From: an uncultured Flavonifractor sp.
Lineage (GTDB): Bacteria; Bacillota; Clostridia; Oscillospirales; Oscillospiraceae
Direction of reading: 5' to 3'
DNA length: 55,393 nucleotides
Assembly: GCF_944385615.1 (NCBI RefSeq)
Contig: NZ_CALWXV010000011.1
Coordinates: 1-55,393, forward strand
Shown here: piece by piece, positions 41,628-50,706 of the stretch
How the letters are laid out: each line of letters opens with the position of its first letter
How positions within the stretch are numbered: the stretch's first letter is position 1
The notes under the pieces: model-generated
The model's input: the letters and a program-made list of their open reading frames with translations, nothing else
What the model was told of the DNA's origin: nothing
Databases searched by the model: none
Translations under genes and position numbers: made by a program

Positions 41628-41780
41628 TTACCTCTTATTCCGGCGGCCATACTTCCGGTGTCCCAGCACCAGGATCGAAATGCCTACCCCTGCCAGGATG
41701 GCTCCCATCACAATCTGCCCAAAGACAGGGATAGAGAGAGCGAACGTCATGTAGCTCGTATCAATACCACCAACAGTCAT
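41628..41780 (-). CDS. 50-residue single-span membrane protein
   Basis: Short gene with a good ribosome site (AAGGAGG, 8 bases before the ATG). The product has a polar N-terminus, one hydrophobic helix (about residues 12-40, Ile/Val/Gly/Leu-rich) and a very basic end (HRKYGRRNKR). It lies 13 bases after the stop of the membrane-anchored Xre regulator and presumably shares its transcript. No family is recognised; a modulator or partner of the regulator is a reasonable guess. Confidence 0.7.
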   Translation of the reverse strand: MTVGGIDTSYMTFALSIPVFGQIVMGAILAGVGISILVLGHRKYGRRNKR

Positions 41781-42250: not shown

Positions 42251-42267
42251 CGCAACCGCTGGTTGCG
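42251..42267. repeat. attL: 17-bp palindromic core
   Basis: CGCAACCGCTGGTTGCG, identical to 50690-50706 in the same orientation. The 7-bp arms around a GCT centre form a perfect palindrome, as expected for a tyrosine-recombinase core site. Confidence 0.85.
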
Positions 42268-42336: not shown

Positions 42337-42359
42337 TTTTCCCCTTATGTTTTCCCTTA
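42337..42359. repeat. Left arm-type repeats of the element
   Basis: TTTTCCCCTTA at 42337-42347 and TTTTCCCTTA at 42350-42359, 13 bp apart. The same pair occurs at 50557-50578. They probably bind the N-terminal domain of the integrase. Confidence 0.7.
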
Positions 42360-43526
42360 CGAGCTGAAAACCGCCTTGATGAAGCCCTCCATGCGGGCAG
42401 CGCTGTCCTGCTTCATACGCTCCGTAAAGTGACCGTATCTGTCCAGAGTAAAGCCCGCGCTGGAATGGCCCAAGTTGCCTTGAATTGTCTTGATATCGTC
42501 ACCCGCTCGAATCGCATTGACGGCGTATGTATGTCGGAGGTCGTGGAATCTCACACTATCCAGACCGGCGGCCTTAATGGCGGCGGAAAACCACCCTTCC
42601 ACAGTCTGCTGGAGCAGCGGCCCACCAATCTGATCTGTAAACGCTAGGTTGTGGGGATTATCCCACAAAGGGCCGGCCTTGATCTGCATTTCGGCTTGCC
42701 GCCGCCGCTGCTCTTTCAGGTTTTTCAAAACAAAGGGGGCAGGGGTGATCGTCCGGCTTTTGCCGTTCTTAGGGGAGATAAACAGGCCGCTTTCCGCCCG
42801 GTGCTCGGGCCGAGTCAGCTGCTTACAGATTAGAATCGTCCCTTTCTGGAAGTCCACGCAATCCCAGGTCAGACCCAGCAGCTCGGAAAGGCGGCAGCCA
42901 GTAAACAGGGCGACAGATATCAGCAGCTCCAGGCGGCCACCCTTGACAGCTAGAAGGAGTGCGGCGGCCTGCTCATCATCCAGCGGGCAAATTTCCTTTT
43001 GTTCCATTCTGGGGAGCTGACAATCAGACGCCGGGTTCCTGGGTATATAGTCCAGCTTCACGGCCTTTTGCAACGCCTGATGAAGTACCTTATAGGCCAG
43101 CCGGACGGAGGCCGGGGAGAGCTCCAGGCCGTTGATAAACCTCTGTACCATATGAGGCCGCAGCTCAGAAAGCCCCACCGCGCCCAGGGCCGGCTTGATA
43201 TGCAGACGGACATTATTCTTGTACACCTGAACGGTAGCGGGCTTCACACCTCCTAGGTATTCCGCAGTCCATGTGTCCAGCCACACTCCAACGGTCATTT
43301 TTGTGGGTGTGGTATAGGTGCCCTGGTCAACAGCCAGAGTGGCTGCTTTGAGGCGCTGGGCTACCTCTTTCTGTGTTTTCCCGGTTATGCTCCGCTGGAT
43401 CTGCTTGCCGGTGCCGGGGTCACGGCCAACGGTGAAGCGGGCCTCCCAATAGGTATATTCCTTTCCCGAGCGGGTCACAGTTTTCTTGCGTATGGTGCCA
43501 GCGCCCGACGCTGCCTTTCTGCTCAT
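42357..43526 (-). CDS. Tyrosine recombinase (integrase)
   Basis: A 389-residue site-specific recombinase with an AP2-like arm-binding N-terminus (about residues 10-60), a core-binding SAM-like domain (TVGVWLDTWTAEYLGG, about 75-165) and the catalytic domain. The active-site residues are all present: Arg in TGCRLSELLGL, HDLRHTYAV (His-x2-Arg), the His of LGHSS and the nucleophile Tyr in TLDRYGHF. The start is the ATG at 43526, 6 bases after AAAGGAG; the ATG at 43550 would hide this site. It reads towards attL, the usual orientation. Confidence 0.95.
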   Translation of the reverse strand: MSRKAASGAGTIRKKTVTRSGKEYTYWEARFTVGRDPGTGKQIQRSITGKTQKEVAQRLKAATLAVDQGTYTTPTKMTVGVWLDTWTAEYLGGVKPATVQVYKNNVRLHIKPALGAVGLSELRPHMVQRFINGLELSPASVRLAYKVLHQALQKAVKLDYIPRNPASDCQLPRMEQKEICPLDDEQAAALLLAVKGGRLELLISVALFTGCRLSELLGLTWDCVDFQKGTILICKQLTRPEHRAESGLFISPKNGKSRTITPAPFVLKNLKEQRRRQAEMQIKAGPLWDNPHNLAFTDQIGGPLLQQTVEGWFSAAIKAAGLDSVRFHDLRHTYAVNAIRAGDDIKTIQGNLGHSSAGFTLDRYGHFTERMKQDSAARMEGFIKAVFSS

Positions 43527-43586
43527 ACGGCTCTCCTTTCCACTTGCCACTTGCGCCCGCTCGTCCTTCTATGGTACAATATGGGC

Positions 43587-45543: not shown

Positions 45544-45948
45544 ATGAGCATGGACCAATACCTGACATACACGGCAGAGGATTACCGCAACACGGTAAAA
45601 GCACTAAAGATTATGCAAAATATCCCCTTTGACAACCAGCGCAGCAGAGAAGCGCAGGAACGGGAACGGGCCATACTGGCAGCAGCATTGGAGGCGGCCA
45701 GATATGCGGCCCTGCGGATGGAAAACCCGCCTCTGACCAGGGAACATCTGAAGCGGATGCACGGACGGGCAGTATACCTGGAACACCCCGAATATTCCGC
45801 CGGATCAGCCGGAATTGTGGACGGGCACGATGAAAGCATCGTGATTCTTGGCCCTGAAGGAATAGAGCGGGGTGCGTGGTTTTGGGGGATTCCCGGCAGA
45901 TATTACCGTTTCCCTGTTGACGGCGTGGACTTATCTTTCTTCAAGTAA
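45544..45948 (+). CDS. Uncharacterised 134-residue protein
   Basis: A soluble protein with an acidic, helical N-terminal half and a C-terminal part rich in Gly/Asp (AGIVDGHDESIVILGPEGIER). GAGG precedes the ATG. It lies 46 bases upstream of the replication initiator. No family is recognised. Confidence 0.65.
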   Translation: MSMDQYLTYTAEDYRNTVKALKIMQNIPFDNQRSREAQERERAILAAALEAARYAALRMENPPLTREHLKRMHGRAVYLEHPEYSAGSAGIVDGHDESIVILGPEGIERGAWFWGIPGRYYRFPVDGVDLSFFK

Positions 45949-45994
45949 GTATGCCAGAGCCAGGACACCGGTACACCAGAGAAAGGGGCAGCAT

Positions 45995-46753
45995 ATGGCA
46001 AAGCGGAAAAAGACCATAGTGGCCGGCGACCTGATAAAGACCGTGATTTATACAGCTCCGGAGCCCAGGGACGGCCCCCGGGTACGGGCGGCCAAGTCCC
46101 GTATGACCAGCGCCGCACAGAAGGCCATGAACGATAAAACCGCGCGGGGGAAGTTGGAAATGCAGATTGCGGCCGCCTTCAAGCGGAGTGATCTTTTCCT
46201 TACCTTGACCTATCGCCCAAAAGATCTTCCGGCCAATCGAAAAGGAGCGGTAATCAATGTGCGCAAATTCCTGCGGAACATGAGGGAATACAGGAAATCC
46301 GTAGGGATTCCATTTAAATATATTTACGTCACGGAGGAAAAGCACGGAGACGGTAAATTACACCATCATATCATCATGAATGCCACCGAGCGGGACATTG
46401 AGACAATCCGCAGCCTGTGGCCTTATGGGGATGTCATTGATATTGAATACCTTGGGTGCCGGGAATATGTGACCTGGGCAGAGTACATGACAAAAGAGGG
46501 TGTAGAAGGCCGCCAGGTCGGGGCGCAGCTGTGGACTTCAAGCAAAAATCTGGAAAAACCGAAGGTTACATACAGCTATGTGGACAACGATGAGACACTG
46601 ACCGCGCCCATCGGTGCGCATGTGCTGGAGAAGGAGGAAAAGGTTACAGAGTTCGGGAGCTACTGCTACATCAAATATTATATTCCACCTAAATACTGGG
46701 GAGAGGAACGCCCGCAAAAAAGCGAGCCGTGGCCTCTTATGTCTTGTTTATAA
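45995..46753 (+). CDS. HUH-type replication initiator (ORF2/G2P-like Rep)
   Basis: A 252-residue rolling-circle type endonuclease. Motif 1 is FLTLTY (68-73), the metal-binding HUH motif is LHHHIIM (His123, His125) after EEKHGDG, and candidate catalytic tyrosines lie in YVTWAEYM (Tyr158, Tyr164). This order matches the ORF2/G2P replication-associated domain found in inoviruses, microviruses and small plasmids; it nicks an origin and primes rolling-circle synthesis. AAAGGGG precedes the ATG at 45995. It suggests the element can replicate when excised. Confidence 0.82.
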   Translation: MAKRKKTIVAGDLIKTVIYTAPEPRDGPRVRAAKSRMTSAAQKAMNDKTARGKLEMQIAAAFKRSDLFLTLTYRPKDLPANRKGAVINVRKFLRNMREYRKSVGIPFKYIYVTEEKHGDGKLHHHIIMNATERDIETIRSLWPYGDVIDIEYLGCREYVTWAEYMTKEGVEGRQVGAQLWTSSKNLEKPKVTYSYVDNDETLTAPIGAHVLEKEEKVTEFGSYCYIKYYIPPKYWGEERPQKSEPWPLMSCL

Positions 46754-49446: not shown

Positions 49447-49552
49447 AGTATAATATACTTGCGTAATTATATCAATGCGCACAATATACATAATTGCGCA
49501 AGTATATTTGGTGATTTTATATATTTACGCAAGTATACAAACGAAATATAAT
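49447..49552. promoter_or_regulatory. Divergent promoters with three TTACGCAAGTATA operators
   Basis: TTACGCAAGTATA at 49525-49537, its exact inverse at 49454-49466, and TTGCGCAAGTATA at 49494-49506. Plus promoter TTTACG-17-TATAAT (49524-49552) drives the RHH gene; minus promoter TTGATA-17-TATACT (49475..49447) drives the small-gene operon. One operator overlaps each promoter and the third lies midway. Confidence 0.8.
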
Positions 49553-49585
49553 ATGTGTAATAGTACAATGAAAAGGAGGTGTATC

Positions 49586-49828
49586 ATGACTGTATCAAAG
49601 GCACAGCAGAAGGCAACGAACAAGTGGATTGAGAAAACCTACGACCGCATAAACCTGACCGTCCCCAAAGGCCGAAAAGATGAAATTAAAGCCCATGCAG
49701 AGGCCCACAGCGAGAGTGTGAACGGCTTTATCAACAGGGCCATAGGGGAAACCATGGAGCGGGACAACGCCGCTTCTGTGGCTGCTGCTGGCGGCGGGCA
49801 GAGAGAAAAGGAAATGCACCAGACATAG
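49586..49828 (+). CDS. Arc/CopG-like ribbon-helix-helix repressor
   Basis: An 80-residue protein. After a basic N-terminus comes YDRINLTVPKGRKDEIKAHA then SESVNGFINRAIGETM, the strand-helix-helix pattern of Arc-type repressors. AGGAGG lies 6 bases before the ATG. It faces three repeated operators, so autoregulation and control of the divergent operon are likely. The C-terminal tail is Ala/Gly/Gln-rich. A toxin partner immediately downstream is not seen, so I do not call it an antitoxin. Confidence 0.85.
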   Translation: MTVSKAQQKATNKWIEKTYDRINLTVPKGRKDEIKAHAEAHSESVNGFINRAIGETMERDNAASVAAAGGGQREKEMHQT

Positions 49829-49848: not shown

Positions 49849-49990
49849 GAAGTTTCCCGTGGCGGGCTCCTGGCCGTCTTGGCGGTGCTGTTGGGCCATG
49901 CGGGTATCTCTCAACCTGTCCCGCTCCAGAAGGGTAGCGTGGGGACAGTGGATGCCTACCAGGGGCAAAGAAAAGGCCCCTGGCGAGGCC
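49849..49990. repeat. GC-rich degenerate repeat block 3
   Basis: Contains CCCGCTCCAGAAGGGTAGCGTGGGG-related sequence like blocks 1 and 2 (GGTAGCGTGGGG near 49936). No gene seen. Confidence 0.4.
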
Positions 49991-50031
49991 CGGGGCTTGA
50001 CAGTATGGCAATATCGGCCTATAATGAAAAT

Positions 50032-50120
50032 AGAAAGAGGCGTTGCCGGATACGGTCAGCCCTTAGAGTAGTTTGAAGTGATCGCCGTACTTGTCAGGGT
50101 GCCGGCGGTCATTTCTTTTT
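50032..50120 (+). ncRNA. Candidate antisense RNA antitoxin
   Basis: A perfect promoter TTGACA (49997-50002), 17-base spacer, TATAAT (50020-50025) points at the 3' end of the toxin gene. The transcript would end at a 9-bp stem with one U-G pair (50079-50087 with 50103-50111) and TTTCTTTTTA. It contains no frame with a ribosome site. The last bases are complementary to the end of the toxin reading frame and its 3' untranslated region, the tail-to-tail layout of type I antitoxins such as RatA. Confidence 0.7.
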
Positions 50121-50192
50121 ACGGCTCATAAAGAGGCCTATAATACCAACAATGAGAATACCAATCTGAATAAGGTCAGAATATGTAACCAT
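50109..50192 (-). CDS. Small hydrophobic peptide, candidate type I toxin (holin-like toxin family)
   Basis: A 27-residue peptide: short polar start (MVTYSDLIQ), one transmembrane helix of Ile/Val/Gly/Leu (about residues 8-22) and a basic end (MSRKKK). This is the form of the putative holin-like toxins of Firmicutes. AGGAGG lies 8 bases before the ATG. The mRNA leader has a CAGCCCTC segment that can pair with the GAGGGCTG of the ribosome site, as in other type I toxin mRNAs where translation is held back. A convergent RNA overlaps its 3' end. Confidence 0.75.
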   Translation of the reverse strand: MVTYSDLIQIGILIVGIIGLFMSRKKK

Positions 50193-50281
50193 TGGGCAGC
50201 CCTCCTTTCCGAAGATTGGAGGACAAAGAAGCTGCCCTCCATCAAGAGGGCTGACCGCTACTATCCGACAACGCCAAAGTC

Positions 50282-50310
50282 AGAATACCACATAATTAGA
50301 TCGGGCGCAA
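50282..50310 (-). promoter_or_regulatory. Promoter of the toxin gene
   Basis: On the minus strand TTGCGC (50310..50305), a 17-base spacer and TATTCT (50287..50282); the leader would be about 83 bases. Confidence 0.65.
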
Positions 50311-50329
50311 GGGTTGGAATAATGTGCCC

Positions 50330-50500
50330 AGGCGGCCAGGGGCGGGGCTACAGTGCCCCTGGCCGCGCTGATCGGCGCGGCGGTCCCGTGTTTACTCCTG
50401 CTCCAAGAGCGATGCATGGACCCCCGGTGAACTGGTGGCGTCCGTTTTTTACACCAGCGAAACGAGCGGGTGGTGATCCCTGGCGAGTGTAACTTTCAGG
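50330..50500. repeat. GC-rich degenerate repeat block 4
   Basis: Includes AACGAGCGGGTGGTGATCCC at 50461, nearly the same as 48461 and 47232, and a GGCCAGGGGC/GCCCCTGGCC inverted repeat (50336-50363). No gene seen between the toxin promoter and the right end. Confidence 0.55.
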
Positions 50501-50525
50501 AGTAGGCCTCTGCCTGATCTAAAGG

Positions 50526-50560
50526 AAAAGGGCCTTGCGTCGGCAAGACCCTTTTGTTTT
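50526..50560 (+). terminator. Terminator near the right end of the element
   Basis: AAAAGGG-C-CTTGC pairs with GCAAG-A-CCCTTTT (one mismatch), followed by GTTTTCCC. It would stop plus-strand transcripts leaving the element. Confidence 0.7.
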
Positions 50561-50578
50561 CCCTTATTTTTTCCCTTA
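50557..50578. repeat. Right arm-type repeats of the element
   Basis: TTTTCCCTTA at 50557-50566 and again at 50569-50578, 12 bp apart, matching the pair at the left end. Confidence 0.7.
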
Positions 50579-50689
50579 AAGCAAATTGACACGAGAAAAT
50601 AGCGGCATAAAATACAAGAAAAATAGTTCTCAAATAAGTAGAGATTACATTAAAATAATGCGTATTGATGGTAGCTAAAAAGAGAGTTG

Positions 50690-50706
50690 CGCAACCGCTG
50701 GTTGCG
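50690..50706. repeat. attR: 17-bp palindromic core
   Basis: CGCAACCGCTGGTTGCG, identical to attL at 42251-42267. The flanks differ, so 17 bp is the whole visible duplication. Confidence 0.85.

What the first reader, a model, noticed from the sequence alone, without database searches (positions are those of the whole stretch)
49997..50310. Candidate type I toxin-antitoxin locus at the right end of the integrative element
A 27-residue gene with a strong ribosome site encodes a one-helix hydrophobic peptide with a Lys/Arg end, like the holin-like type I toxins. It has its own promoter (TTGCGC-17-TATTCT). From the other side a perfect TTGACA-17-TATAAT promoter drives an RNA of about 90 bases that ends in a terminator overlapping the toxin's 3' end. 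The toxin leader can also mask its own ribosome site (CAGCCCTC with GAGGGCTG). Together this is the txpA/RatA-like layout and would stabilise the element.
Basis: partly seen in the sequence, partly recalled or inferred. Interest (0 to 1): 0.72.

Follow-up and report, generated by a model that had tools for sequence, protein, structure and literature searches.

The report
Candidate toxin peptide with antisense RNA
A mobile DNA element carries a tiny membrane-peptide gene faced by an antisense RNA that looks built to keep it silent, and the same RNA framework, fitted with many different peptides, turns up in many related bacteria.

Summary
A 27-codon ORF (50192-50109, minus) encodes a one-helix peptide with a Lys/Arg tail. 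A perfect TTGACA-17-TATAAT promoter (49997-50025) opposes it and should drive an RNA of about 90 nt (50032-50121), whose terminator overlaps the Lys codons and stop. The locus sits just inside the right end of a small integrase element; relatives show the unoccupied site. Related peptides occur in 25 of 200 same-family genomes (own included). A covariance model of the antisense RNA matched 82 of 245 order-level and 82 of 291 class-level genomes. Of 172 matches examined, 162 have the promoter and 137 a short hydrophobic ORF ending at the RNA's 3' end; 16 of 17 RNA base pairs show two-sided change. The peptides are often unrelated, so the RNA chassis looks conserved and the toxin exchangeable. 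Most unusually, toxin mRNA and antisense RNA begin with the same sequence, kept matched within a locus. Best reading: a type I toxin-antitoxin module, closer in layout to par/Fst than to txpA/RatA, a member of neither, without an Rfam match and not found in the papers searched. Toxicity, transcription and the silencing mechanism are inferred, not shown.

The parts
49997..50025 (+). antisense (antitoxin RNA) promoter TTGACA-17-TATAAT
   Evidence: promoter >=9/12 upstream of 162 of 172 model hits
50032..50121 (+). predicted antitoxin RNA, about 90 nt
   Evidence: fold; model R1 hit 50033-50120, 61.2 bits (own sequence is in the model)
50039..50063 (+). 5' element of the antitoxin RNA, the same sequence as the toxin leader's 5' element
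   Evidence: 24 of 25 aligned bases identical plus one 4-nt gap; inverted repeat I5
50057..50064 (+). CAGCCCTT, can pair with toxin ribosome-site stretch GAGGGCTG
   Evidence: 8 pairs with one G-U; duplex of the 14-nt element -18.4 kcal/mol
50075..50115 (+). antitoxin terminator hairpin, probably shared with the toxin mRNA 3' end
50109..50192 (-). toxin ORF, 27 aa, ATG start, TGA stop
   Evidence: Hol_Tox E 5.9e-4; homologues
50197..50205 (-). ribosome-site stretch GGAGGGCTG
   Evidence: sequence
50218..50223 (-). TCCTCC arm predicted to mask the ribosome site
   Evidence: folds
50234..50251 (-). leader hairpin GCCCTC/GAGGGC
   Evidence: folds
50247..50275 (-). toxin leader 5' element (GGCGTTGTCGGATAGTAGCGGTCAGCCCT)
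50252..50258 (-). GCGGTCA, complementary to TGACCGC at the toxin stop (50111-50105)
   Evidence: fold; conservation test
50282..50310 (-). toxin promoter TTGCGC-17-TATTCT with extended -10
42251..42267 (+). left copy of 17-bp repeat CGCAACCGCTGGTTGCG, likely attachment site
   Evidence: single near-copy between the flanks in G182, G022, G212 (not found by the pattern in G118)
50690..50706 (+). right copy of the 17-bp repeat
42357..43550 (-). tyrosine integrase of the element (PF00589)
45872..46753 (+). replication protein of the element (PF23343)
49475..49828 (+). weak ribbon-helix-helix-like ORF next to the locus
   Evidence: below Pfam cut-offs

Best explanation
It is a type I toxin-antitoxin module. 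The minus-strand mRNA encodes a 27-residue membrane peptide, by analogy a membrane-active toxin. The plus-strand RNA, from a consensus promoter, is made in excess (inferred). Both RNAs probably end in the same hairpin, so they are fully complementary there; that overlap probably starts the contact (inferred). The antitoxin's 5' element repeats the toxin leader's own 5' element and can pair with the ribosome site and with the stop region, so it may act in trans as a copy of the leader that keeps the mRNA shut (inferred). The mRNA alone is also predicted closed: TCCTCC masks the ribosome site and the leader pairs with the stop-codon region. If the element is lost, the shorter-lived RNA should vanish first and the toxin be made, favouring cells that keep the element (inferred). 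The module belongs to a widespread family, by named relatives in Clostridia, whose RNA chassis is conserved while the peptide is exchangeable.
For: Homologous copies: 23 of 200 same-family genomes by DNA, 25 of 200 by peptide, own genome included; 44 toxin ORFs in the fetched loci, 41 of 44 with an opposing promoter scored >=9 (spacing bonus included) 70-100 nt past the stop. Antisense-RNA model matches 82 of 245 order and 82 of 291 class genomes. Of 172 matches examined, promoter in 162 (random sites 196 of 3000) and hydrophobic ORF in 137; without duplicates and the 3 copies used to build the model, 166: promoter 156, ORF 132, both 124, neither 2. ORF nulls: 32 of 2000 random sites, 97 of 6278 other stops, 0 of 51 Lys-preceded stops. 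122-sequence alignment: 16 of 17 pairs with both-side changes, 230 such cells against 65.5 shuffled, 0 of 500. Same 5' element in both RNAs: 149 of 172 beat all 30 shuffles, reverse-complement control 2 of 172; cognate 30.1 against swapped 18.2 (sd 0.30, max 19.3). Relative G182 has an element with the same order of similar segments and the module in the same place.
Against: No transcript, toxicity or silencing data. Antisense 5' element against ribosome site: long-segment test null (1 of 41 copies p<0.05; cognate p 0.75); short test mixed (score p 0.028, energy p 0.48; 13 of 38 copies p<0.05, 3 of 41 copies without a recognisable element left out); 172-copy test p 0.0002 for ribosome site and 0.0004 for leader, but both vanish against the target of the nearest relative (69 stronger, 83 weaker; 76, 85). 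Leader/stop pairing is far above shuffled leaders but only slightly above swapped ends (69 against 60.7, sd 2.5, max 67), perfect Watson-Crick matches are not above (19 against 16.2), and the 87 copies with a variant stop region match the consensus better than their own by Watson-Crick count (6.68 against 6.10; with G-U 6.98 against 7.03). 35 of 172 model hits showed no qualifying ORF. The peptide is below the Hol_Tox cut-off. The model's 3' end covers the Lys codons, so basic peptide ends are partly built in.
Confidence: 0.8

Rival explanations
1. A small membrane peptide that is not a toxin (regulatory or stress peptide), controlled by an antisense RNA.
For: No toxicity data; peptides are diverse and 5 of 10 tested had no Pfam match at E<=1.
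Against: Peptide form, antisense control, multi-copy tandem occurrence and mobile-element setting fit type I toxins as reviewed (passages and one section); so much buffering is hard to explain for a harmless peptide (inference).
Confidence: 0.13
2. The shared 5' element is only a stabilising 5' stem-loop or a common protein site, and silencing is by terminator duplex plus RNase III alone, as for txpA/RatA. This rival concerns the mechanism, not the toxin-antitoxin reading.
For: Direct tests of pairing with ribosome site and leader are weak once relatedness is controlled.
Against: The element is kept matched between the two RNAs within a locus; before that control a cognate signal is seen for ribosome site and leader, not for coding region (p 0.42) and hardly for the 3' end (p 0.085).
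Confidence: 0.4
3. A decayed or chance arrangement: a terminator between genes with a spurious short ORF.
For: An exact copy of the terminator can occur alone: the Anoxybacillus match L186 has no such promoter or peptide on inspection.
Against: Independent features coincide: 124 of 166 distinct non-training hits have both promoter and ORF, 2 have neither; the RNA covaries.
Confidence: 0.03

Closest known systems
par of pAD1 (Fst / RNA II), Enterococcus
   Same: Convergent promoters, shared terminator, second complementarity at the toxin ribosome site, ribosome site held in a stem-loop, short one-helix peptide with charged tail, mobile element (PMC7472228, passages read).
   Different: No PXXXG motif in the peptide; antitoxin about 90 nt, not about 40; the two RNAs also share a same-sense 5' element (a DNA inverted repeat), which the passages read do not describe for par.
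txpA/RatA, Bacillus subtilis skin element
   Same: Convergent, 3'-overlapping antisense RNA, hydrophobic toxin, integrated element.
   Different: About 120 nt overlap, degradation by RNase III, 59-aa toxin (PMC3531473 and PMC8167048, passages); here overlap about 45 nt (inferred ends) and 27 aa.
Hol_Tox family (PF16935)
   Same: 17 of 35 aligned relatives match at E<=0.1, best 2.5e-6; 1 of 10 further tested peptides passes the cut-off (24.5 bits). A holin-like toxin ORF with a mapped start site is reported on C. acetobutylicum pSOL (PMC9045289, passages).
   Different: The window peptide scores 20.1 against 23.3; of 10 peptides on the same RNA chassis 8 do not match Hol_Tox at E<=1.
C. difficile prophage modules (CD0977.1-RCd11 and others)
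   Same: Type I modules on mobile elements of Clostridia; shown to stabilise a prophage (PMC7699646, abstract); convergent ones described in PMC6563280 (section 4).
   Different: 34-47 residue toxins in the five prophage modules of that abstract; no sequence relation was tested here.
aapA1 / hok long-distance closure
   Same: Predicted 5'-3' pairing that closes the toxin mRNA (aapA1 in PMC8167048, passage; hok recalled).
   Different: Processing and activation steps unknown here.

Membership tests
type I toxin-antitoxin (general) | short hydrophobic peptide with charged C-terminus | tested here: met
   sequence; hydropathy screen of relatives
type I toxin-antitoxin (general) | opposed antisense RNA with own promoter overlapping the toxin gene | tested here: met
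   by sequence and conservation only; transcription not shown
type I toxin-antitoxin (general) | peptide is toxic and the RNA neutralises it | not testable with these tools
   needs experiment
Hol_Tox PF16935 | score at or above curated cut-off 23.3 bits | tested here: not met
   20.1 bits, E 5.9e-4
par / Fst | shared bidirectional terminator | tested here: inconclusive
   hairpin is near-symmetric and the reverse strand scores weakly with model R1 in several loci, but the toxin-side U tract is poor (my reading) and the mRNA end is unmapped
par / Fst | antisense 5' region complementary to toxin ribosome site | tested here: inconclusive
   8 pairs in the window; mixed statistics
par / Fst | ribosome site sequestered in a leader stem-loop | tested here: met
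   predicted folds only
par / Fst | toxin PXXXG motif | tested here: not met
   peptide has no proline; Pfam listed only Hol_Tox
txpA/RatA | long (about 120 nt) overlap and 59-aa toxin | tested here: not met
   27 aa; overlap about 45 nt if both RNAs end at the shared hairpin
txpA/RatA | RNase III dependent decay of the toxin mRNA | not testable with these tools
   needs experiment
any Rfam RNA family | match at gathering score | tested here: not met
   0 in the window; in 18 fetched loci (of 43 searched with R1) only tRNA and RNase P

The most novel reading that the evidence does not exclude
A Clostridia-wide, RNA-defined superfamily of toxin-antitoxin modules in which the regulatory RNA chassis is inherited and the toxic peptide is swapped, and in which the antitoxin RNA represses by carrying a copy of the toxin mRNA's own 5' regulatory element (leader mimicry), the two copies being kept in step on opposite strands.
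Probability: 0.4. Interest if true: 0.8.

Novelty: new variant of a known kind. Interest (0 to 1): 0.62.

Why it matters
A 2019 review (PMC6563280, section 4 read) says that experimentally validated type I modules in Clostridia were confined to C. difficile, and that direct search for RNA antitoxins remains difficult. Here the antitoxin RNA is the conserved part: a model of it finds matches, often several per genome, in 82 of 245 order-level and 82 of 291 class-level genomes sampled. That gives a handle on maintenance of mobile elements in these bacteria and a testable case of an antitoxin that copies its target's own leader.

Tried and rejected
Rejected: membership of txpA/RatA or Fst (see tests); the Rfam sub-threshold match at 50523-50639 (Phe_leader 32.3 bits against 55, E 0.0025), taken as a chance hairpin match; NCBIfam LPXTG_anchor (17.4 bits, above its cut-off of 15.9), taken as a hydrophobic-plus-basic resemblance because the peptide has no LPXTG motif; the L186 Anoxybacillus terminator, which lacks promoter and peptide on inspection. 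The long-segment duplex test was negative. The nearest-relative control removed the ribosome-site and leader signals. Variant stop regions do not match their own leaders better than the consensus. No match to window 49900-50400 in plasmids by DNA or to the peptide in phages. Papers: searches found none; two found 2 and 3, none on such modules by title and abstract start; others listed reviews and other work, of which I opened 7 papers: section 4 and passages (PMC6563280), passages (PMC7472228, PMC9045289, PMC8040213, PMC8167048, PMC3531473), outline with abstract (PMC7699646). Most subscription papers are not held, so absence from print is not shown.

Rows dropped:'s 70 matches the top 50 were used;'s 110, 106 (two duplicates in L293, one opposite-strand echo in L368, one weak L311 match left out);'s 26, 16 (duplicates, echoes and L186 left out). 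The regions fetched for one search were picked by me from the listed, stronger matches, so the 172 are not a random sample; 3 of them are copies used to build the model and 3 repeat another antisense sequence. The order and class samples share some genomes. For alignment A1, 34 of 41 antisense RNAs were used (7 divergent ones left out). A3's 36 peptides and the 10 were picked by me. In one search the element of L026 was placed by hand.

Full report
What is there. On the minus strand an ATG ORF at 50192-50109 encodes MVTYSDLIQIGILIVGIIGLFMSRKKK behind a GGAGG site. On the plus strand a 12-of-12 promoter at 49997-50025 precedes an RNA that folds into a 5' hairpin and a strong 3' hairpin at 50075-50115 with a U tract (z -5.42). 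The U tract is the complement of the toxin's Lys codons, and the 3' hairpin covers its stop. The toxin promoter is weak, but its form, TTG...17...TATNNT, recurs in 26 of 42 relatives against 1.5 expected, in 14 of 42 with TG before the -10 (0.02 expected).

Setting. The locus lies inside an element bounded by a 17-bp repeat at 42251 and 50690, with integrase, replication protein and regulators. In G182 of the same genus the two flanks lie next to each other, less than 100 bases apart, with a single near-copy of the repeat between them; G022 and G212 look alike, while in G118 the repeat pattern was not found. G182 has a copy of the module elsewhere, in an element where stretches similar to the window's integrase, replication protein and RHH-side ORF follow in the same order (translated similarity), the module lying in the same place; further integrase-like stretches lie beyond it. 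Between the two copies the leader (80 of 90) and antisense part (83 of 91) are more alike than the toxin core (43 of 69): the RNA frame is under more constraint than the peptide, or the peptide has been exchanged.

Relatives. DNA search matched 23 of 200 same-family genomes, peptide search 25 of 200, own genome included in both. The fetched loci hold 44 toxin ORFs, 43 of 44 with a ribosome-site-like stretch; 41 have an opposing promoter. RNAalifold on 34 antisense RNAs gives a two-part 5' hairpin and the 3' hairpin, 8 of 17 pairs with compensatory change. The model R1 matched 82 of 245 genomes of the order, 74 of these in other families, and 82 of 291 of the class, 75 of these in other orders. 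Neither promoter nor peptide helix is in the model, yet of 172 examined hits 162 have the promoter (null 196 of 3000) and 137 a hydrophobic ORF ending at the RNA's 3' end (nulls). Leaving out repeats and the 3 training copies, 166 remain: promoter in 156, ORF in 132, both in 124, neither in 2. On 122 sequences 16 of 17 pairs have both-side changes, far beyond shuffled and slid controls; this alignment was fitted to the structure, and part of helix 3 overlaps codons. A toxin profile over the phylum matched 16 of 299.

Which bacteria. One same-family genome (G066, L090) is identical over 1 kb to a named Pseudoflavonifractor record (L196), a genus of Oscillospiraceae, class Clostridia; that the class searched is Clostridia follows from this. 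Thirteen viral contigs carry the pattern.

One chassis, many peptides. The peptides in R1 hits share little: 36 that I aligned have 21% mean column identity, and 5 of 10 tested have no Pfam match at E<=1. The window's own genome holds two further strong R1 matches in tandem on contig C55 (and two weak ones elsewhere, E 0.011 and 0.86), with an unrelated peptide, MERMGNGRWAKVLRFLVCFIMILAVMIYISPKAC and a near-twin, and the same RNA elements.

The mirrored 5' element. In the window the antisense RNA (50039-50063) and the toxin leader (50275-50247) share GGCGTTGYCGGATA...CGGTCAGCCCT in the same sense. In 149 of 172 copies this likeness beats all 30 shuffles, in 2 of 172 for the reverse complement. 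It is locus-specific: cognate score 30.1 against 18.2 swapped; own leader in the top five of 172 for 102 copies; against the leader of the copy with the most similar antisense RNA, own is higher in 88, equal in 32, lower in 52. So the two ends are kept in step. A shared target would explain this: in the window CAGCCCTT can pair with GAGGGCTG at the ribosome site, and GGTCA with TGACC at the stop. But direct tests are weak or mixed, so leader mimicry remains inference.

Toxin mRNA closure. The predicted full-length mRNA folds at -72 kcal/mol (z -3.34), with TCCTCC masking GGAGG and the leader's GCGGUCA paired with UGACCGC at the stop. Over 168 copies, 69 leaders pair all 8 positions with their stop region against about 2 for shuffled leaders, and slightly above swapped ends (60.7, max 67 of 100 permutations); but perfect Watson-Crick matches are no more frequent than with swapped ends, and the 87 copies with variant stop regions fit the consensus at least as well as their own. 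Conservation is clear, covariation is not.

Known kinds. Works like par/Fst in layout (PMC7472228, passages) and may share the stabilising function of C. difficile prophage modules (PMC7699646, abstract). It is not a member of Fst (no PXXXG) or txpA/RatA, and the peptide is sub-threshold for Hol_Tox. No Rfam family matches it.

Verdict. A well-supported type I toxin-antitoxin candidate and a new variant of a known kind: an RNA-defined family with exchangeable peptides and a mirrored 5' element. All of this is comparative; no expression or toxicity is shown.

Noticed in passing
own genome contig C55 (L158, 1290-1727): Two tandem copies of the antisense RNA chassis with an unrelated 31-34 residue hydrophobic peptide.
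   Followed up: partly
L311 (G354 contig 35), L306, L304, L123: Several R1 matches in a row within a few kilobases (4 to 8 per locus), in part with near-identical peptides; reason for amplification unknown.
   Followed up: no
window 41628-41780 (-): 50-residue hydrophobic ORF with basic C-terminus beside an HTH gene, left of the likely attachment repeat; not examined as a toxin.
   Followed up: no
window 50332-50366: Perfect 12-bp inverted repeat GCGGCCAGGGGC just upstream of the toxin promoter.
   Followed up: no
window 50586-50613 (+): TTGACA-16-TAAAAT (11 of 12) near the right attachment repeat without an evident gene.
   Followed up: no
L186: Anoxybacillus record with an exact copy of the terminator pattern but no such promoter or peptide; a terminator alone is not evidence of the module.
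   Followed up: yes
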